A stretch of DNA of 33,649 nt from a virus. Every line of letters starts with the position of its first letter. Position 1 is the first letter of the stretch. Below are positions 3,525 to 33,649 of the stretch, piece after piece. Location of the stretch: IMG/VR virus record IMGVR_UViG_3300046536_000190, positions 1 to 33,649 of that record; one strand, 5' to 3'. The translations under genes and the position numbers were made by a program. Below the pieces are notes generated by a model. It was not told the DNA's origin, made no database searches, and was given only the letters and a program-made list of their open reading frames with translations.

Positions 3525-4148
3525 ATGTCCGTGATCGCATTTGTGTCACAAAAGGGTGGGGTGGGGAAGTCGACCATTGCGCGTGCGTTGGCGCGCGAGG
3601 GCGCGGCTAACGGCATGCGCGTCAAGCTGGCCGACCTCGATACGCAGCAGTCGACCAGCATGTTCTGGCAGATCACGCGCACAGGTGCCGGGATCGAGCC
3701 GATCGTCTCCGCCGAGGCGTTCAAGACCGCTGCGCAGGCGCTCGCCATCGCGAAGCAGTACGACCTGCTGGTGATCGACGGCCCGGCGCGCACGAGCAAG
3801 GCCACACTGGAAATCGCGCAGGCAGCGAGCCTCGTGGTGCAGCCGAGCGGCGCGAGCATCGACGACCTGCGCCCGGCGGTGCGAGAGTTCCACGCGCTGG
3901 TGAAGGCGGGCATCCCGGCAGACCGGCTGCGCTTCGCCCTGTGTCGCATCGGCACCGACGCGGAGGAGGCCGACGCCCGCACCTACCTCACGGAGGCCGG
4001 GTACAAGGTGCTCGACGGGTGCCTCGTCGAACGGCCGGCGTACCGCCGCGCGCAGGGTGACGGCTACTCGGTGACCGAGACGCGCTACTCGGCGCTCAAC
4101 GCGCGCGCCGACGCGCTGATCCAGTCCCTCATCGACGCGGCAGGGTGA
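3525..4148 (+). CDS. parA: ParA-family partition ATPase, 207 aa
   Basis: ParA ATPases bind nucleoid DNA when ATP-bound and move plasmid copies apart through a partner bound at the centromere. The deviant Walker A motif KGGVGKST is at residues 10-17 (signature lysines K10 and K15), the A' motif ADLDTQQS at 36-43, and the Walker B strand LLVIDGPA at 81-88 with D85. At 207 aa and without an N-terminal HTH domain it fits the small type Ib class (ParF-like). The start at ATG 3525 follows AGGGG at 5-nt spacing. The parG-like gene starts four bases after its stop, so the two form one cassette, probably controlled through the repeats upstream. Presence next to rep implies stable low-copy plasmid maintenance. 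Confidence 0.95.
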   Translation: MSVIAFVSQKGGVGKSTIARALAREGAANGMRVKLADLDTQQSTSMFWQITRTGAGIEPIVSAEAFKTAAQALAIAKQYDLLVIDGPARTSKATLEIAQAASLVVQPSGASIDDLRPAVREFHALVKAGIPADRLRFALCRIGTDAEEADARTYLTEAGYKVLDGCLVERPAYRRAQGDGYSVTETRYSALNARADALIQSLIDAAG

Positions 4149-4152
4149 CGAG

Positions 4153-4461
4153 ATGGCGACATTCAAATCAAAGGGGTTTGGCGCTCCGCCGACGATCGAG
4201 GACGCGAGCCCGAACCTGGACGAGCCCGAAGCGTTTCAGCCTCCCGAAGATGAGCCACAGGCAGAGCAGGGCGCCGCGCATCGTTCGCCGTTTCCGCGGC
4301 GCCGCGAGCCGACCCAGCCGATGAACTTCCGCGTGCCGCTCGCGCTGTTCGAGGAGCTGCGAGACTTCACGAAGGAGAGCGAGATCCCGATGACCGAGAT
4401 CGCGGTGGCGGGCATTCGCAAGGAGCTGGCTGCGTTGAAGAAGAAGTACGGTGTGAAGTAG
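4153..4461 (+). CDS. Ribbon-helix-helix partition partner (ParG-like), 102 aa
   Basis: The N-terminal half (residues 1-56) is acidic, proline-rich and probably flexible. The C-terminal half (57-97) reads as a ribbon-helix-helix: a short strand MNFRVPLALF, helix FEELRDFTKES, turn IPMTEI, helix AVAGIRKELAALKKK. RHH proteins of this size and layout next to a small ParA act as centromere-binding proteins and autorepressors, with the mobile tail stimulating the ATPase. The gene follows parA by four bases. Sequence alone cannot separate a ParG, a ParB-analogue or a plain repressor, but its placement makes the partition role most likely. A putative promoter lies inside its 3' end. Confidence 0.85.
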   Translation: MATFKSKGFGAPPTIEDASPNLDEPEAFQPPEDEPQAEQGAAHRSPFPRRREPTQPMNFRVPLALFEELRDFTKESEIPMTEIAVAGIRKELAALKKKYGVK

Positions 4462-4464
4462 AAT
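4435..4464 (+). promoter_or_regulatory. Putative promoter in the 3' end of the parG-like gene
   Basis: TTGAAG (4435-4440), 18-bp spacer, TAGAAT (4459-4464). The TAGAAT box and spacer length match those before the tRNA-like gene. The expected start near 4471 would give a transcript of about 160 nt ending at the terminator at 4632. Confidence 0.4.
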
Positions 4465-4470
4465 CGGGCC

Positions 4471-4632
4471 GGGCGCCGCGCGCAAGCGCGTCATCGCGGA
4501 AAGGGGAGTGTGATGGACATTGAGCCAGGTCGGCAGCCCCGTCCTGCCTGATTACTCCACCAAAGAAAAGCCACGTGACTGCTCAATGCGCCCACTAAGC
4601 CCGCACGACCTCATACCCCGTGCGGGCTTTTT
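4471..4632 (+). ncRNA. Candidate small RNA between the partition genes and the origin
   Basis: A putative promoter (4435-4464) and a strong terminator (4597-4632) bracket about 160 nt with no sizeable gene. The segment can form hairpins, for example GGCAG/CTGCC around 4532-4548. It also holds a 12-codon reading frame (ATG 4513, MDIEPGRQPRPA) behind GGGGAG, so it might instead carry a short peptide or be only the 3' UTR of the par transcript. Boundaries are estimates. Confidence 0.3.
4597..4632 (+). terminator. Rho-independent terminator after the partition genes
   Basis: An 11-bp perfect stem (AAGCCCGCACG 4597-4607 with CGTGCGGGCTT 4619-4629), an 11-nt loop and a run of five T (4628-4632). 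It separates the par transcript from the origin. Confidence 0.9.
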
Positions 4633-4708
4633 CATGCGCACTCGGAAACGCAACTAGCCGTCAGCCGGCAGTCGCAGGGGCGGGCAGACCGTTGGTTGCC
4701 TTTTCTGC

Positions 4709-4780
4709 AAAACTGCTTTTAATAAGATTTAATCTTGTTTTTAACAGCTTTCACACTGTTCAAGTCTTTGATTTTAAAGG
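4709..4780. other. AT-rich segment of the replication origin (likely unwinding element)
   Basis: This stretch is far richer in A and T than the rest of the window and lies immediately upstream of the iterons. It includes the inverted repeat AAGATT-T-AATCTT (4724-4736) and a second pair AACAG/CTGTT (about 4743-4760). In iteron plasmids the AT-rich block beside the iterons is where strands first open; assignment here is by position and composition. Confidence 0.65.
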
Positions 4781-4789
4781 CGAAAACTA

Positions 4790-4952
4790 GGCTTATTGGG
4801 GCTTTTGACCGGGTTGAAAGGGGCAACGACTCGGGTTATTGGGGCTTTCGGTCGGGTTATTGGGGCTTTTAATCCGGTTGAAAGGGGCAAATAGTCGGGT
4901 TGAAAGGGGCAACGACTCGGGTTATTAGGGCAAACGGTCGGGTTGGTGCCTG
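4790..4952. repeat. Iteron array, eight copies at 21-22 bp spacing
   Basis: Units with core GGGTTRWWRGGGC begin at about 4790, 4811, 4833, 4854, 4875, 4897, 4919 and 4940, spaced 21, 22, 21, 21, 22, 22 and 21 bp, about two helical turns. Two sequence flavours are mixed: GGGTTGAAAGGGGCAA (copies 2, 5, 6) and GGGTTATTGGGGCTTT (copies 1, 3, 4); copy 7 is intermediate and copy 8 is partial. Iterons bind Rep_3-type initiators, and the rep gene lies just downstream, which makes this the plasmid origin. Confidence 0.9.
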
Positions 4953-4954
4953 AT

Positions 4955-4963
4955 TGTGGATAA
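4955..4963 (-). promoter_or_regulatory. DnaA box
   Basis: TGTGGATAA on the + strand is the reverse complement of the consensus DnaA box TTATCCACA, a perfect 9-mer. It sits directly between the last iteron and the rep leader, where host DnaA would assist Rep in opening the origin. Confidence 0.85.
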
Positions 4964-4971
4964 CTTCGACT

Positions 4972-5042
4972 TTGCACCAAAGCGCAACTGGTGCTACCGT
5001 AAACCCAAGCCCCATGAACCCGATTGGATGCCCCAATGAGCG
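4972..5042 (+). promoter_or_regulatory. rep promoter with inverted iterons over the start codon (probable autoregulation)
   Basis: A plausible promoter is TTGCAC (4972-4977), 17 bp, TACCGT (4995-5000), with the inverted repeat GCACCA/TGGTGC (4974-4994) between the boxes. Downstream, AAGCCCCATGAACCC (5007-5021) is an inverted copy of the iteron with two changes. A second inverted core, GCCCCAATGA (5030-5039), lies 21 bp further on and contains the rep ATG. Inverted iteron-like operators next to rep are the usual means by which Rep dimers repress their own synthesis. Confidence 0.6.
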
Positions 5043-5794
5043 AGATTGCTGAAGTGTCCGCGCCGGAAGAAACGCGCACCTCGATAGGCGAGCGCTGGGT
5101 AACCTTCGCCAACGACCTGACGCGCGCCGCGCACAAGCTCACGCTCGGCGAAAAGCGGCTCGTTGCGGCCTGCATCGCGCAGGTAAAGTCCGACTCTCCG
5201 GTGCCGACGGCCTCGGAGCGCGACCGGAAGATGTTCACGGTAACCGCTGATCAGTACTGCGAACTCTACGATGTCGAGCGCGAGACAGCGTACGGCCAGA
5301 TGAAGACCAATGCGACGACGCTGTTCGGAAAAGAGATCCACACGGTCAGGCCCGACGGCCGCGCCGGGCGCCGTGTGCGCTGGGTGCAGGAAATCCAGTA
5401 CAACGAGGGCGAGGCCAGCGTGACGCTGATGTGGAGTGACGCACTCTGCCTGGCGCTGTTCAATCTCAAGGACCAGTTCACGACCTACAAGCTCCGGTAC
5501 GCGGCGAATTTGACGTCGAAGTACGCGTGGACGCTGTTCGAGCTGCTCGCCATGTGGCGCCGCCGCGGCAACTTCTCGATCGACGTGGATCAGTTCCGCG
5601 ATAAGCTCGACGTTAAGCCGTCTCAGCGAGCCAACTATAAGGAGCTGCGCACGCGGGTAATCGAACCGGCGGCCAAGGAGATCCACGAGAAGTGCGGCAT
5701 AGTCGTGACGGTCGTCGAAAAGAAGCGCGGCAAGCGTGTGACCGATCTGGCGTTTTCGTGGGAACCCGATCCGCAAGGCACGCTCAACTTCTGA
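5036..5794 (+). CDS. rep: Rep_3-family (RepB/RepA-type) plasmid replication initiator, 252 aa
   Basis: These initiators bind iterons as monomers, melt the adjacent AT-rich DNA and recruit the host replisome. The frame is also open from a TTG at 5024, but ATG 5036 is the natural start. The conserved opening of the first winged-helix domain is clear (AHKLTLGEKRLVAACIAQV, residues 32-50), followed by the central region with the TxYKLRYAANLTSKYAWTLF segment typical of Rep_3 proteins. The second winged-helix domain follows (FSIDVDQFRDKLDV ... YKELRTRVIEPAAKEI), then a basic patch KKRGKR near the C-terminus. Length and domain order agree with theta-replicating plasmid initiators. Iterons, DnaA box and AT-rich DNA lie immediately upstream, and inverted iterons overlap the start, indicating self-repression. 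The phage structural genes begin 110 bp after its stop. Confidence 0.95.
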   Translation: MSEIAEVSAPEETRTSIGERWVTFANDLTRAAHKLTLGEKRLVAACIAQVKSDSPVPTASERDRKMFTVTADQYCELYDVERETAYGQMKTNATTLFGKEIHTVRPDGRAGRRVRWVQEIQYNEGEASVTLMWSDALCLALFNLKDQFTTYKLRYAANLTSKYAWTLFELLAMWRRRGNFSIDVDQFRDKLDVKPSQRANYKELRTRVIEPAAKEIHEKCGIVVTVVEKKRGKRVTDLAFSWEPDPQGTLNF

Positions 5795-5903: not shown

Positions 5904-6311
5904 ATGACGCTCAGCTATTCGAACGAACTGAAGAACGCGCAGCAGGATCTGATCACCACGAAAGTCGGCGCGAACGGCTTCGTGAACTACTACGACGGCG
6001 CCCGGCCGACCAACGCCGACACCGCGGTCACCAGCCAGAACCTGCTCGCGCAGTTCGCGCTCGGCGCGGTGCTCGGCCCCGCCTCGGTGAATGGCGTGCT
6101 CACCGCCTCGGCTATCGCGGACGCGGCCGGCAAGGCCATCGCCGGCACCGGCAAGAGCGCGACGTGGTTCAGCCTGACGAAGGCCGACGGCACGCGGGTG
6201 ATCGACGGCACGCTCGCGCAGTCGGGCGGCGACATCACGATCGACAACCCGAGCATCGCGCAGAACCAGGCCGTCAGCCTGACGAGCCTTACCCTCACGA
6301 ACCCGAACTGA
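5904..6311 (+). CDS. Conserved phage protein, probable beta-rich virion-associated, 135 aa
   Basis: The protein opens MTLSYSNELKNAQQDLITTK and continues with a YYDGARP segment, a small hydrophobic helix block (ASAIADAAGKA), TWFSLTKADGTRVIDGTL and a C-terminal run of beta strands (GDITIDNPSIAQNQAVSLTS). This order is familiar from a family of small phage proteins found among head and tail genes, thought to be virion components but not experimentally assigned as far as I know. ATG 5904 follows GGGG (5894-5897) at good spacing. It is the first gene after the replicon module and marks the change to structural genes. Confidence 0.7.
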   Translation: MTLSYSNELKNAQQDLITTKVGANGFVNYYDGARPTNADTAVTSQNLLAQFALGAVLGPASVNGVLTASAIADAAGKAIAGTGKSATWFSLTKADGTRVIDGTLAQSGGDITIDNPSIAQNQAVSLTSLTLTNPN

Positions 6312-6324
6312 GCCGCAGCTCAGT

Positions 6325-7845
6325 ATGGGCTCCCTGTCGGGATCGACCGCGGCCAGTAGCGCTGCGGTCAACCTCAGCTCGCCCGCGCAGACGGACTGGA
6401 TTCAGTTCCCTCAGAGCGCGACCGCCCCCAACCGCAAGAGCGGGGGCGGCTCGACCATTTCCCTGCCGACCCCGATCGGTACGGGCGTGGCGATCGCCGG
6501 CTACGGCCCCGACGCGCGAAGCCTCACGTGGAGCGACGGCACGCCGGTCGCGAGCGCCACCAGCGCGGACGGGATATTTGCCCCGGCCTCGGGGTCGGCG
6601 GTGGTCGGCAACGGCTTCCAGTTCACCGTACCCGCCGACACGAACCAGCGCACGGTCGTCGTCGCGTGGGGGATATACGGCGGCGACACCGGCGCGAATG
6701 TCGCTGCGGCGAAGCTGGTCGCCACACTCTCGGACGGTAGCGCGACTGCGGTCACGCACACCCCGACGGGCGTCGCGGCCGGGGTAGCCGCCAGCTACCT
6801 GACCACCATCACGTACAGCGCCAACAGCGCGGGTCAGACGCTGAACATCGCGATCACGCTGACGGTCGTCAACGCGGGCGCGGGCAACTACTGCAACCTC
6901 ACGCTGCAGTCGGCGAAGTACCTGACCGCGCTCGCGGCGCGCACCTCGTCGGGCGCGCCGGCCGCGGCCCGCACCACCTCGGCCGGCATGGCGAAGTCGA
7001 AGTCGAAGGCTTCCGGAGCGCTGCACGTCACAGCGGCGAAGTCAGCCGGCGCGGGACATACCAAGGCGCGCGCGAGCGGCGCACTGCACGTTGCGGCATC
7101 GACAGTGAGCGGCGCGGCCCACGCGAAGTCGCGCGCCACCGCCGCGCTCACGGCGCGCGCATCGACCGCGTCAGCAACCTCGCATGTGAAGTCGAGCGCG
7201 CACGGCACCTCCGCCAGCGCCGCGGCGCGCGCGGCCGGCGCGGCACATGTCAGGTCGCGCGCGGCGGGCGCGCTCAACGGCGCCGTTACCCAGGCGGCCG
7301 GCGCGGCACGCGCAAAAGCCGCCGCGCGCGGCACGCTGGCGGCGGCGGCAGATCTCGCGGCAGGCGCCGCCGACGCGCGCGTTGCCACGCACGGCGCGGT
7401 GACGGGCGCCCTCGCCCACTCCATAGGCGAGTCGTTCACTGAGCCGGTGCCGACCGAGCACTCGACGTCGTCGGGCGCGCTGGTCGCCGCGCCTGCCTAC
7501 TCGACCGGCGTCACGCGCACGAAAGCCGCCGCGCACGGCGCGCCCGCCGTCGCACCCACCAGCGCCAGCGGCCACAGCGGCGTCAGGGCGGCTTCGCGCG
7601 CGGCGCTGTCCCAACGTCCCGGCACGGGCGCGGGCGCGGCGCATACGGCCATCTCGTCGGCGGGCGCGGCCACCCCGGCACCCTGCCGCGCGCGCGGCAC
7701 ATCGCGCACGGGCGCTGTGGTCGTCGTGCCCAGCGACACGCGCCGCTCCGCGAGCTTCGAGCCGCGGCAGTCGCGGCAGAGTTTCGAGCCGCGCGCGGCC
7801 ACCGCGACGTACCGACCACGCAATAACAGATCGAGGCTCACATGA
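6325..7845 (+). CDS. Virion-type protein with a beta-rich head and a 21-residue repeat tail, 506 aa
   Basis: Residues 1-210 look like a compact beta-rich domain (DWIQFP, NRKSGGGSTISL, RSLTWSDGTPVAS, TVVVAWGIYGGDTG, AGNYCNLTLQSAKYL). Residues from 219 on are low-complexity and very Ala-rich. They are built of about eleven units of 21 residues with a loose consensus (S/A)xGxxHxKxxAxGAL; one unit is six residues longer. The tail ends in two SFEPR copies and a basic end (YRPRNNRSRL). Such an Ala/His/Lys repeat could form a fibrous helix or bind DNA. No family is recognised. It stands 13 bp after the previous gene and overlaps the next start (ATGA, 7842). A surface fibre, internal head protein or scaffold-like role are all possible. 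Confidence 0.7.
   Translation: MGSLSGSTAASSAAVNLSSPAQTDWIQFPQSATAPNRKSGGGSTISLPTPIGTGVAIAGYGPDARSLTWSDGTPVASATSADGIFAPASGSAVVGNGFQFTVPADTNQRTVVVAWGIYGGDTGANVAAAKLVATLSDGSATAVTHTPTGVAAGVAASYLTTITYSANSAGQTLNIAITLTVVNAGAGNYCNLTLQSAKYLTALAARTSSGAPAAARTTSAGMAKSKSKASGALHVTAAKSAGAGHTKARASGALHVAASTVSGAAHAKSRATAALTARASTASATSHVKSSAHGTSASAAARAAGAAHVRSRAAGALNGAVTQAAGAARAKAAARGTLAAAADLAAGAADARVATHGAVTGALAHSIGESFTEPVPTEHSTSSGALVAAPAYSTGVTRTKAAAHGAPAVAPTSASGHSGVRAASRAALSQRPGTGAGAAHTAISSAGAATPAPCRARGTSRTGAVVVVPSDTRRSASFEPRQSRQSFEPRAATATYRPRNNRSRLT
6979..7752 (+). repeat. 63-bp degenerate coding repeats (21 aa each), about 11-12 copies
   Basis: In-frame units start at 6979, 7042, 7105, 7168, 7231, 7294, 7357, 7420 (81 bp, with an 18-bp insertion), 7501, 7564, 7627 and 7690 (last one degenerate). 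The period is strict while the sequence has drifted, indicating old duplications kept in register at protein level. Confidence 0.75.
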
Positions 7846-8135
7846 GCACCAACGCACCTACCCTGCTGGACCCGAAAGATCCGGCGGAGACGACCGACTA
7901 CGAGTTCGACTTTTCGACGCTGCTCGCGAGCGACGAGAACATCGTGAGCTACGACCTGGAGACGCCGGATGACCTGACCAAGGTGGGCGACAGTCAGGAC
8001 GGCAAGGTGATCACCGCCTACTACTCGGGCGGCATCGACGGCGCCACGTACCGTCCGCGCTGCAAGATCACGACCGACTCGGCCACCCCGCGCGTGATCG
8101 TGCGCAGCCTGGCCTTCCGGTGTGAGAAGCTGTAG
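7842..8135 (+). CDS. Small phage structural-type protein, 97 aa
   Basis: It opens with LLDPKDPAETTDYEFDFSTLL and continues with a strand-rich core (ITAYYSGGIDGATYRPRCKI, VIVRSLAFRCEKL). The DPKDPxExxDYxxDxS start and the SGGxDGxxYxxxxxI middle are typical of a small beta-sandwich phage protein family usually encoded among virion genes and sometimes labelled fibre-tail adaptor. It overlaps the previous gene by four bases, so synthesis of the two is probably coupled. Whether it attaches the repeat protein to the virion is conjecture. Confidence 0.7.
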   Translation: MSTNAPTLLDPKDPAETTDYEFDFSTLLASDENIVSYDLETPDDLTKVGDSQDGKVITAYYSGGIDGATYRPRCKITTDSATPRVIVRSLAFRCEKL

Positions 8136-17164: not shown

Positions 17165-17650
17165 ATGGCAAAGCTAATCTCTGGCGCCTACATGGAAGCG
17201 ATCAAGGCGCGTGTCACGGCACTCGAAGACCATCTCGGCAAGGACGCCGAGATCAAGAACCTGGTGGGCTCACTGCGCCACCCGTTCACCAACACCTGGT
17301 TCGAGCTGAACAAGCTCACGCCGCACGTGTTCGACGGCTTCCTGCGCGGTCAGGTGGTCGCGGGCCGCGTGATCGCCTTCATCGAAGGCAAGCAGATCGG
17401 ACGTGAGCTGCCCGAGATCAAGACATCGCCGGAAGGCAGCGGAGTTGATCGTACCGGTCCTACAGCGCTCGTCGAGCCGCTGATTCCGCAACCGGAAGCG
17501 CCGGTCGAGCCGCAACCGGAAGCGCCGGTCGAGCCGCAACCGGAAGCGCCGGTCGAACAGCCGGTCGAGCCTGTGGCTGAGCAACCCGCTGAGCAACCCG
17601 CTGCGCCGGCCGCGGTCAAGTCCTCGATCCTGAAGAAGCCGGCCGCTTAA
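17165..17650 (+). CDS. Head-gene-region protein with a Pro/Glu repeat tail, 161 aa
   Basis: The longer frame from 17036 overlaps the capsid gene; ATG 17165 (MAKLISGAYMEAIKARV) is the likely start. Residues 1-85 form a folded, partly helical domain (FTNTWFELNKLTPHVFDGFL, GRVIAFIEGKQIG). From about 107 the chain is a flexible Pro/Glu/Gln repeat: three copies of PQPEAPVE, then related words ending in a basic KSSILKKPAA. It occupies the slot of lambda FI, which lies between the capsid gene and the joining genes; FI helps dock terminase on proheads. That shared role is inferred from position only. Confidence 0.55.
   Translation: MAKLISGAYMEAIKARVTALEDHLGKDAEIKNLVGSLRHPFTNTWFELNKLTPHVFDGFLRGQVVAGRVIAFIEGKQIGRELPEIKTSPEGSGVDRTGPTALVEPLIPQPEAPVEPQPEAPVEPQPEAPVEQPVEPVAEQPAEQPAAPAAVKSSILKKPAA
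17486..17557 (+). repeat. Three tandem 24-bp coding repeats (PQPEAPVE)
   Basis: The units at 17486, 17510 and 17534 are near-identical at DNA level, so copy number probably changes by slippage. Confidence 0.85.
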
Positions 17651-29115: not shown

Positions 29116-32100
29116 ACGCTCGCGTACCTTTCAACAGGCGCCCTCTCGCGGGCGGCTTTCCCGCTCCGAAGCGCGTCATAGCGCGCATCCCGAGCGAGCC
29201 GCCGCGCGGAGCTGGCGGCGGAGGCAAGGCAGGCGGTGGTTCGTCAACCACGCCAACGGAAGATCCGGACTCGCTGCAGTCCGTAGCCTTTGTCTCGGTG
29301 CTCGATCTACTGTGCGAGGGTGAGATCCAGGGTTTGGTGAAGGGCGGCTTCAGCCCGAGCGTGGCCGGCGTGGAGTCGGACTCGATCTTTCTGGACAACG
29401 TGCCGGTCACGTCCAACGGCTCGCCGAATTTCAACGGCTACACGGTGGCGTGGGTCAACGGGACACAGGCGCAGGGCGTCATCCCAGGCTTCGGATCGGT
29501 CTACTCGGCCGTCACGCTCGGTTCGGAGGTCAAGGCAGGTGTGCCGATCCAGGCGTCGGTCGATAACCCGGAAGCGAACGCTGTGGTCGTCACAGCGTCG
29601 GTGTCGCAGCTGTATTCGGCCAACACTACCACCGGTGACGTCAAGGGCACCACAGTCGACCTGGTCTTCGAGTACCGGCCCACAGGCAGCGTCACGTGGA
29701 TTCAGGGCGCGGCGATGACCATCACAGGAAAGACGCGCAGCAAGTATCAGCGCAGCGTGCGCTTTGACCTGACCGGCACCGGCCCGTGGATCGTACGCTG
29801 CCGCCGCATCACTGCAGACTCCACCAGCTCGGCGCTGGTGAACAACACCTTCTTCGACGTGGTCGAGTCGGTGGTCGATCAACGGCTACGCTACCCGAAC
29901 TCGGCGCTCGTCGGGCTGACCATCGACGCGCGGCAGTTCAGCAGCGTGCCCTCGCGCAGCTACCTGGTAGATGGGCTGATCATCCGCGTGCCGAACAACT
30001 ACGATCCGGATCTGCGCACGTACAGCGGCGCGTGGAACGGGGGTTTCAAGCTCGCATTCTGCAATAACCCGGCATGGTGCTTCTACGACCTGATCTCGTC
30101 GACGCGCTACGGGCTGGGCAACTACCTGAGCGACGCGACGGTAGATACGACGGCGCTGTACCAGATCGGCCAGTACTGCGACGAGATGGTGCCCGACGGG
30201 TTCGGCGGCATGGAGCCGCGATTCACCTGCAACATGGTGATCAACAACCCGAAGGAAGCCTACCAGTGCATGCAGGACATGATCTCGATCTTCCGGGGCA
30301 TGACCTACTGGGCGGGCGGCAACATCCTCGTGACGCAGGACGCGCCGAAGACGCCGGTGAAGAAGTTCTCGCGCGCGAACGTCGTCGGCGGCAAGTTCAC
30401 GTACCAAGGCACCGCGCTCAAGGACCGCCACAGCGTCGCGCTCGTGCGCTGGAACGACCCCGCGCAGCTGTACCAGCAGAACACCGAGTACGTCGAGAAC
30501 GCAGACGCCCTCGCCCGCTTCGGCGTGAAGGTCACCGAGATCATGGCGGTGGGCTGCACCTCGCGCGGGCAGGCGCACCGGCTCGGCCAGTGGGCGCTCA
30601 TCAGCGAACTGGCCGACACCGACCAAGTGATGTTCCAGGCAGGCATGGACGCTGCGATGCTCACGCCAGGCGAGGTGATCTACGTCGCGGACCCGGTGCG
30701 CAGCTCGAAGCGCATTGGCGGTCGCGTGCTCAAGGCCGACCTGAACACCGTGACGCTGGACGCGCCGGTGGTGCTCGACGCTGGTCAGACGTACTCTCTG
30801 CTCTACTACGACGGCAACGGCGACAGCTACCAGACGCAGGTGCTCAACACCGCCAACACGACGGCGCTGCTGACCTTCACGGCGCCGGTGACGAATCCGC
30901 CGCAGCCGGGCTTCATGTGGGTGCTCACAGGTTCGAACCTCGTGCCGCAGACTTTTCGCGTCCTTAACGTTAAGGAGTCCGAAAAGAACCTGTTCGACGT
31001 CACGGCCGTCACCTACAACGCATCGAAGTACGCTGCGATCGACTTCAATACCAAGCTGCAGATGCCGCCGGTTGGCTATGGCGACGCGCTCGGTGCCGCG
31101 ATCCCGAAATTCTGGAGCCTGACAGAGACGACGTTCCTCGCGGCGCCCGGCGTGATCGGCTCGAAGATCATCATGAGCTGGTCGGGCAACACGACGCACT
31201 TCATGATCCAGTGGCGCGTGAACGGCGGCATCTGGATGAGCGACACGACGCGCACGCCGGGCTACGAGATCGACGGCGTGACCAAGGGCGACATCTACGA
31301 CTTCAAGATCTACGGTATCGCCGCGGATGGCGCGCTGTCGGCCTCGCTCGACGAGACGTACACGATCAACGGCAGCAGTGCGCCGCCCGGTGCGCCGACG
31401 TCGCTCACCGCGCAGGCCGACTTCCGCTCGGCGAAACTGAACTGGGCTGCGCCGCCCGACCTCGACCTGGCTTACTTTCAGGTGGCGTGGGCGGGATCGA
31501 ACAACCTCGCCGCGGCAGGCATCGTCGGCGACAAGATCGGCAGCACGAGCTGGACAGTGGGCACTCTGACGCCGACGGTGCCTGTCTACTTCTGGGTGCG
31601 CGCGGTCGACACGAGCGGCAACGTCGGGCCGTGGAACAGCAACGTCGGCACGGTCTGCGTGCCGCTGCAAGGCGGCACGCTCGACATCGAGAACCTGGCG
31701 GTCACCAACGCGAAGATCGCGAACGCAGCGATCGGCACGGCGCAGATCCAGAACGCTGCGATCACCTCGGCGCTGATTGCCAACGCGCAGATCGTCGCGG
31801 CGCACATCGCCAACGCGCAGATCCAGAACGCACACATCCAGGATCTGTCGGTCAGTACGTTCAAGATCGGCGCGAACCAGGTGACGACGATGGTTTCAGT
31901 TTCGTCGGGCAACAACGTCTCGACGTCGTACACCGGCAGCGGCGGCATGATCCTCGTTCTCGCCAGCGGGCCTCTGAGTTCGGCCAGCACCGCGAGCATT
32001 ACCTTGAACGGCGGAGTTCTTGCCAGCGGCACGATCAGTACAGGCGGCGGGACGACTATCTCAACCATCACGCTCACCGCGGTGACCTCCTTTAACGGGA

Positions 32101-33188: not shown

Positions 33189-33649
33189 ATGGCATCGGAT
33201 CTCGAACTTGTAGTAGACGAAACCGTCATCGAGCTGGTTGACTCTGACGTAGGCGGCACGGCTGCGGGCGCGGCTGCGGGCAGCGCAACTGCGGCGGCTA
33301 GTAGCGCGAGCGCGGCGAGCGCTTCGAAGGACGCTGCAGCTACCAGCGCAGCCGCCGCACTCGCGTCGAAAAACGCAGCTGGCACCAGTGAGACGAACGC
33401 GGCCACGAGCGCAGCTGCCGCACTCGCGTCGAAAAACGCAGCTGGCACCAGTGAGACGAATGCAGCTACCAGCGCAGCCGCCGCACTCGCGTCGAAAAAC
33501 GCAGCTGGCACCAGTGAGACGAATGCAGCTACCAGCGCAGCCGCCGCACTCGCGTCGAAAAACGCAGCTGGCACCAGTGAGACGAATGCAGCTACCAGCG
33601 CAGCCGCCGCACTCGCGTCGAAAAACGCAGCTGGCACCAGTGAGACGAA
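33189..33649 (+). CDS. Side tail fibre, N-terminal part (3' partial)
   Basis: ATG 33189 starts a short acidic head (MASDLELVVDETVIELVDSD) followed by a long Ala/Ser/Thr tract with 21-residue repeats (KNAAGTSETNAATSAAAALAS). Such repeats, three heptads each, are typical of the stalk of lambda Stf-like trimeric side fibres. The receptor-binding end lies beyond the window. The gene follows the small tail-tip genes, as stf follows J and lom in lambda. Confidence 0.8.
   Translation, partial: MASDLELVVDETVIELVDSDVGGTAAGAAAGSATAAASSASAASASKDAAATSAAAALASKNAAGTSETNAATSAAAALASKNAAGTSETNAATSAAAALASKNAAGTSETNAATSAAAALASKNAAGTSETNAATSAAAALASKNAAGTSET
33366..33649 (+). repeat. Near-identical 63-bp tandem repeats in the fibre gene, 4.5 copies visible
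   Basis: Units start at 33366, 33429, 33492, 33555 and 33618 (cut by the window edge). The first unit differs by a few silent changes (for example CGCGGCCACG for TGCAGCTACC); the others are identical, indicating recent duplication or gene conversion. Confidence 0.92.

What the first reader, a model, noticed from the sequence alone, without database searches (positions are those of the whole stretch)
6325..7845. Structural-type protein with eleven 21-residue Ala/His/Lys repeats upstream of terminase
The repeat period is strict (63 bp) though the sequence has diverged, and the tail is basic and His/Ala-rich. The gene is in a place where lambda-type phages usually have no large virion gene. The side fibre at the end of the window also uses a 21-residue period, so the two may share a fibrous architecture (three heptads). 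Function unknown.
Basis: partly seen in the sequence, partly recalled or inferred. Interest (0 to 1): 0.6.

Follow-up and report, generated by a model that had tools for sequence, protein, structure and literature searches.

The report
Repeat rope threading a phage bead fibre
The gene encodes what is most likely the "rope" of a beads-on-a-string fibre on a virus of bacteria: a sugar-binding-like tip, eleven short repeats that each dock a small bead protein made by the gene before it, and an end that ties into an anchor protein made by the gene after it; this offers a testable answer to which protein is the string, a question that structural biologists have left open in related phages.

Summary
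In detail: 6325-7845 is one intact 506-aa ORF with eleven in-register 21-aa repeats (one carries a 6-aa insert). The "fibrous, three heptads, like the side fibre" reading is not supported. The repeats show two-residue (extended-strand) alternation and are unstructured alone, whereas the side fibre has a 7-residue rhythm. The gene is the middle of a three-gene cassette. The gene before it encodes a bead (homologous to the phage 7-7-1 garland dimer, PDB 9rkv; weaker fold match to GP4 fibre I, 8jou). The gene after it encodes Pfam Gp77, the GP4 fibre-tail adaptor. In relatives, repeat type follows bead type (partial Mantel r 0.70) and C-terminus follows adaptor (0.76), while the CBM-like N-terminal domain is exchanged independently, although it lies between bead gene and repeats. 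Close relatives differ by exactly one 21-aa repeat. One relative's rope is fused to a lambda-FII-like head-tail attachment domain. Best explanation: a rope whose repeats dock bead subunits, anchored by its C-terminus to the adaptor, with a swappable glycan-binding tip. This is a new variant of a known kind. It proposes the "string" that the Milano and LSH1 authors could not identify. The docking itself is inferred.

The parts
5904..6311 (+). bead gene, 135 aa (phrog_3758 virion structural protein)
   Evidence: PHROG E 6.4e-21; profile hits PDB 9rkv_A (phage 7-7-1 garland dimer) 1.4e-13 and 44nx_B (identical to KPP25 ORF006) 1.5e-12; model pLDDT 80, Z 12.1 to 9rkv_A, Z 7.0 to 8jou_a GP4 fibre I
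6325..7845 (+). rope gene, 506 aa
   Evidence: intact ORF; about 40 relatives in IMG/VR in the same gene slot
6325..6930 (+). N-terminal domain, residues 1-202: beta-sandwich resembling carbohydrate-binding modules (putative tip)
   Evidence: conserved in relatives; Z about 9-10 to CBM22, CBM61, CBM16 and CBA120 tailspike TSP4; no Pfam family
6982..7692 (+). eleven 21-aa repeats, residues 220-456, halves of 10+11 aa; the eighth copy has a 6-aa insert
6994..7056 (+). one 63-bp repeat unit (residues 224-244) absent from close relatives L002 and L003
   Evidence: codon alignment
7711..7842 (+). C-terminal basic segment with Arg/hydrophobic motif copies (putative adaptor-binding anchor)
   Evidence: motif in rope C-termini of relatives; C-terminus co-varies with adaptor, partial r 0.76
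7842..8135 (+). adaptor gene, 97 aa, Pfam PF23148 Gp77 (GP4 fibre-tail adaptor); start overlaps the rope stop as ATGA
   Evidence: Pfam 56.2 bits against cut-off 27, E 5.1e-15; PDB 8jou_D E 1.1e-3; overlap

Best explanation
6325-7845 encodes the rope of a bead-chain virion fibre. The 135-aa product of 5904-6311 forms dimeric beads. The eleven 21-aa repeats of the rope are a row of docking peptides that run in extended form across bead subunits, so the repeat number would set the number of beads and the fibre length. The C-terminal Arg/hydrophobic motifs tie the rope to the Gp77-type adaptor encoded at 7842-8135, which fixes it to the virion, most likely at the neck. The N-terminal CBM-like domain sits at the free end as a glycan-binding tip. 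Shown here: intact gene, repeats, cassette, bead and adaptor homologies, module co-variation, one-repeat indels. Inferred: physical docking, orientation, location, stoichiometry, tip function.
For: Adaptor is Pfam Gp77 above cut-off, also in ten of ten cassettes tested. Bead is homologous to 7-7-1 garland dimers (1.4e-13) and resembles the GP4 fibre I bead (Z 7.0). GP4 itself (L056) has a repeat-bearing 325-aa gene directly after its bead gene; PDB 8jou holds 10 bead chains per 3 adaptor chains. In 25 relatives repeats follow bead (r 0.81, partial 0.70) and C-terminus follows adaptor (0.91, partial 0.76), with repeats~adaptor -0.15 and N-terminus~bead 0.03. Gene order bead-[tip-repeats-C-term]-adaptor means linkage would predict bead~tip to be stronger than bead~repeats; the opposite is seen. 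Contrasts: L004/L007 and L030/L018 keep tip, C-terminus and adaptor but exchange bead and repeats; L067 keeps bead and adaptor with another tip. One-repeat indel. Independently, in five mycobacteriophages the gene next to the bead has a ~20-aa period (z 6.5-14.6). One rope is fused to a lambda-FII-like domain (L024, PF05354, 1.1e-8). Repeats unstructured alone. Literature: A511 beads on a string, with the string missing in Milano (PMC10811340).
Against: No direct evidence of docking; complexes could not be modelled here. The window bead and GP4 beads are not linked by profile comparison, and Z 7.0 is middling. The rope shows no sequence similarity to the GP4 rope candidate. In JC1 virions the bead and adaptor were found by mass spectrometry but the rope homologue was not listed (PMC9144972 Table 6). 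Close bead homologues in 7-7-1 and Milano surround the baseplate, not the neck, and lack a repeat rope gene of this kind. Some phages with beads (PVJ1, CKB-S1, Luchador) show no periodic neighbour gene. Mantel tests do not fully remove shared ancestry.
Confidence: 0.78

Rival explanations
1. It is a self-sufficient trimeric fibrous protein (coiled coil or triple beta structure), a second side fibre.
For: Strict period, Ala-rich tail, and a side fibre with the same 21-aa period in the window.
Against: No heptad signal, two-residue alternation instead; no helix and very low confidence in the monomer model; repeat type follows the bead gene; no tail-fibre family match.
Confidence: 0.07
2. The repeats are only a flexible, weakly selected tether for the N-terminal CBM-like domain; the bead and adaptor genes are neighbours but not docked along it.
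For: Disorder prediction; dN/dS of 0.52 in repeats against 0.19 in the N-terminal domain; low-complexity composition.
Against: Register kept over 11 copies and indels of exactly 21 aa; co-variation of repeats with bead independent of the domain that lies between them; period retained in unrelated repeat families.
Confidence: 0.1
3. The bead-rope assembly is a garland around the tail tip or baseplate, or a head decoration, rather than a neck fibre.
For: Closest solved bead is the 7-7-1 baseplate garland; PHROG files the bead as head and packaging.
Against: The adaptor is the GP4 fibre-tail adaptor family; the L024 rope carries a head-tail attachment domain and that cassette lies between major capsid and tail sheath genes; the window cassette lies just before the terminase and far from the tail-tip genes.
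Confidence: 0.2

Closest known systems
Fibre I of Ralstonia podophage GP4 (PDB 8jou; Zheng et al. 2023, pmid 37660940; its abstract, recalled and not read here, speaks of five gp80 dimers linked by an elongated rope protein on a 15-fold adaptor)
   Same: Adaptor family PF23148; bead of similar predicted fold; order bead - repeat protein - (fibre) - adaptor; C-terminal Arg/hydrophobic motif.
   Different: Host is a lambda-like siphophage rather than a podophage; rope has an added CBM-like N-terminal domain; repeat sequence unrelated; bead of another sequence family (phrog_3758, not phrog_240).
Baseplate garland of Agrobacterium phages 7-7-1 and Milano (PDB 9rkv; PMC12796354, PMC10811340)
   Same: Bead is homologous to the garland dimer protein.
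   Different: Garland wraps the baseplate; its string is unknown (Milano gp126 suggested); no Gp77 adaptor was identified there in this work.
A511 gp105 / T4 gp8 connector chain
   Same: Dimeric beads crossed by an extended peptide; bead model also matches 6hhk at Z 5.0.
   Different: String is part of a baseplate wedge protein and not a dedicated repeat protein.
LSH1 gp34-gp35-gp36 module (PMC13243795)
   Same: Tip domain followed by a long poorly predicted region, a GP4-like dimeric bead, and an Ig-fold protein.
   Different: Tip resembles polysaccharide lyases; the authors could not explain the C-terminal region.
Bead-chain neck fibre of Anabaena phage A-1(L) (PMC10966104)
   Same: Five bead chains at the neck on a 15-mer.
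   Different: Trimeric beads stack head to tail with no rope.

Membership tests
GP4-type bead-and-rope fibre | Gp77-type fibre-tail adaptor encoded with it | tested here: met
   PF23148 56.2 bits, cut-off 27; 8jou_D E 1.1e-3
GP4-type bead-and-rope fibre | Small dimeric bead protein of the GP4 bead fold | tested here: inconclusive
   Z 7.0 to 8jou_a over 112 residues, but no profile link between the two bead families; GP4-family bead occupies the same slot beside the same tip in L019
GP4-type bead-and-rope fibre | Elongated rope protein that links the beads | not testable with these tools
   Gene order and co-variation fit; no complex could be modelled
GP4-type bead-and-rope fibre | Sequence homology of the rope to the GP4 rope candidate | tested here: not met
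   BLASTP best E 2.2
GP4-type bead-and-rope fibre | Five fibres on a 15-fold adaptor ring at the neck | not testable with these tools
   needs cryo-EM
Garland protein family (phage 7-7-1, Milano), for the bead gene | Sequence homology and fold | tested here: met
   1.4e-13 and Z 12.1 to 9rkv_A
Garland protein family (phage 7-7-1, Milano), for the bead gene | Ring around the baseplate | not testable with these tools
   needs imaging
Lambda-type side tail fibre | Heptad or coiled-coil repeat shaft | tested here: not met
   hydropathy peak at 2.1 residues, low at 3.5 and 7; no helix in the model
Carbohydrate-binding module, for residues 1-202 | CBM-like beta-sandwich | tested here: inconclusive
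   Z about 9-10 to several CBM families but parts of the domain have pLDDT below 50 and there is no Pfam match

The most novel reading that the evidence does not exclude
Tailed phages of all three morphotypes use a matched code: each bead family reads its own 18-21-residue peptide, and a dedicated repeat protein strings the beads, so that the number of repeats is a ruler for fibre length; tip, bead+repeat and anchor+adaptor are three exchangeable modules.
Probability: 0.5. Interest if true: 0.78.

Novelty: new variant of a known kind. Interest (0 to 1): 0.62.

Why it matters
Structural papers report bead chains but leave the string open (Milano: unclear what serves as glue or string; LSH1: the poorly predicted tail of gp34 is unexplained). 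The co-variation here names the string, says which part binds what, and makes it testable with two small proteins. It also suggests that hundreds of phage genes filed as head proteins (phrog_240, phrog_3758) may be fibre beads, and it offers a natural length-coded, modular protein chain.

Tried and rejected
Whole-protein and N-terminal-domain tblastn in INPHARED phages: no match. PDB sequence search with the N-terminal domain: only chance hits. PDB search with three GP4-type rope proteins, including the GP4 candidate itself: no real hit, so the rope seems not to be modelled there with its sequence (low complexity could also hide it). Profile comparison of the two bead families: no link. C-terminal motif counts of exactly 3 or 6, matching 3 adaptors per fibre: suggestive by eye but not clean when counted, so not claimed. 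A-1(L) neck fibre as the model: rejected, it has no rope. Coiled-coil or side-fibre homology: rejected. LSH1 genome and the GP4 GenBank record are not in the collections. One repeat per bead subunit: GP4 has 10 bead chains and I count about 11 repeat motifs by eye, so the ratio stays open.

Full report
Observation. The window holds one intact ORF at 6325-7845 (506 aa). Residues 1-202 form a domain conserved in relatives. From residue 220 to 456 there are eleven copies of a 21-aa unit, each made of a 10-aa and an 11-aa half that open with Gly; only the eighth copy breaks the register, by a 6-aa insert. Lag-21 identity is 0.31 against 0.245 for the 99.9% shuffle maximum. The remaining 50 residues are basic.

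Cassette. The gene before it (5904-6311, 135 aa) is phrog_3758, virion structural protein. The gene after it (7842-8135, 97 aa) is Pfam PF23148 Gp77, named for the fibre-tail adaptor of podophage GP4 (E 5.1e-15, twice the gathering score), and it overlaps the rope stop as ATGA. The terminase follows. The rest of the window is a lambda-like siphophage (tape measure, tail-tip set, central fibre J) with a Rep3 initiator and ParA.

Relatives. One scan of IMG/VR found 41 loci and one of bacterial genomes found Pararobbsia alpina. The first 200 residues are 50-95% identical, but the tails belong to several unrelated repeat families, most with a 21-aa period and a few near 18. Most complete cassettes keep the order bead - rope - adaptor, and all ten adaptors tested are Gp77. 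The closest relatives L002 and L003 differ from the window by exactly one 21-aa unit (residues 224-244), with purifying selection in the N-terminal domain and repeats (dN/dS 0.19 and 0.52; the C-terminal segment has too few changes to judge). L067 and L068 also differ by one 21-aa repeat, besides 4 aa in the N-terminal domain.

Module test. For 25 non-identical cassettes I compared bead, N-terminal domain, repeats, C-terminus and adaptor pairwise. Repeats follow bead (Mantel r 0.81; 0.70 after removing the other three; none of 2000 permutations as high). C-terminus follows adaptor (0.91; partial 0.76). Repeats do not follow adaptor (-0.15) or N-terminal domain (-0.03), and the N-terminal domain does not follow bead (0.03). 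With one representative per repeat type (11 cassettes) the repeat-bead link stays (0.62, p 0.0002). The N-terminal domain lies physically between the bead gene and the repeats, so linkage cannot explain this. Single contrasts say the same: L004 and L007 have the same adaptor and near-identical tip and C-terminal motif but different bead and repeats; L030 and L018 likewise; the window and L067 share bead and adaptor types but have unrelated tips. The test does not fully remove shared ancestry.

Structures. The bead model (pLDDT 80) matches PDB 9rkv_A, the garland dimer of phage 7-7-1 (Z 12.1; Foldseek 1.1e-7), and less strongly 8jou_a, the bead of GP4 fibre I (Z 7.0) and A511 gp105 (Z 5.0). The sequence profile confirms 9rkv_A (1.4e-13) and 44nx_B (1.5e-12) but not the GP4 bead family, so the GP4 bead link is structural and middling. 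The rope model has a beta-sandwich at residues 1-202 with best matches to carbohydrate-binding modules and a phage tailspike domain (Z about 9-10), and nothing beyond residue 203 (pLDDT 25-36). Hydropathy of the repeats alternates at 2.1 residues, while the side fibre at the window end alternates at 7.0.

Known systems. GP4 itself appears to be in IMG/VR (L056: bead identical over the 138 residues compared, adaptor in place). Directly after its bead gene it has a 325-aa gene with about eleven motifs spaced by about 21 residues (counted by eye) and the same kind of C-terminal motif. PDB 8jou contains ten bead chains and three adaptor chains but no chain that matches this gene. From memory, not read here, the GP4 abstract describes bead dimers linked by an elongated rope protein; whether its gene was assigned I could not check. 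In A511 an extended chain runs across each bead dimer, and in crystals even His-tags do so; for Milano the string is unknown (PMC10811340). In LSH1 the authors list a three-gene module whose large protein has an unexplained, poorly predicted C-terminal region (PMC13243795). Mycobacteriophages that encode GP4-type beads carry a neighbouring gene with a ~20-aa period in five of the six examined.

Anchoring. One relative (L024) has its rope fused in frame to a Phage_attach domain (PF05354, lambda FII type, E 1.1e-8, above cut-off), in a cassette between major capsid and tail sheath genes. This points to the head-tail junction for that phage, and by inference for the others. The closest bead homologues surround a baseplate, so the location remains the least certain part.

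Mechanism. Beads dock on the repeats, the C-terminus ties to the adaptor, and the exchangeable N-terminal domain is the tip. The first and second steps rest on co-variation and on analogy with A511 and GP4; the third on fold similarity and on module exchange. The number of beads per repeat is open. Against the model stand the lack of any direct complex and the absence of the rope homologue from the JC1 virion proteome, where bead and adaptor were found (PMC9144972).

Verdict. Not a coiled-coil side fibre. Most likely the rope of a bead-chain fibre: known in kind, new in its siphophage setting, its tip domain and its repeat family, and useful because it names the string.

Noticed in passing
window 3525-5794: Rep3 initiator (5024-5794), iteron-like 22-bp repeats (4786-4945) and a ParA-like gene (3525-4148) beside lambda-like virion genes: probably a phage-plasmid. 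Some cassette relatives (L018, L027) also have a Rep3 homologue nearby.
   Followed up: partly
window 33335-33649: Side fibre with five near-identical 63-bp repeats running off the window end; 7-residue hydropathy rhythm, unlike the rope.
   Followed up: partly
L024:6001-8031: Rope fused in frame to a lambda-FII-like head-tail attachment domain (PF05354) in a contractile-tailed phage.
   Followed up: yes
L012:6001-8334: Rope with a C-terminal extension (weak phrog_912 match) and no Gp77 adaptor gene after it: another anchor type.
   Followed up: partly
PHROG 240 and 3758; 520 INPHARED records: Bead-type proteins are filed as head proteins, mostly in mycobacteriophages; probable misannotation.
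   Followed up: partly
L073:2387-3765 (phage 7-7-1): Two garland-type bead genes flank a 165-aa gene, as in Milano gp125-gp126-gp127; the middle gene is the string candidate and has no repeat.
   Followed up: partly
window 31698-31841 and 17486-17556: 30-bp tandem repeats in the end of central fibre J, and a 24-bp x3 Pro-rich repeat in a small gene of the head region.
   Followed up: no
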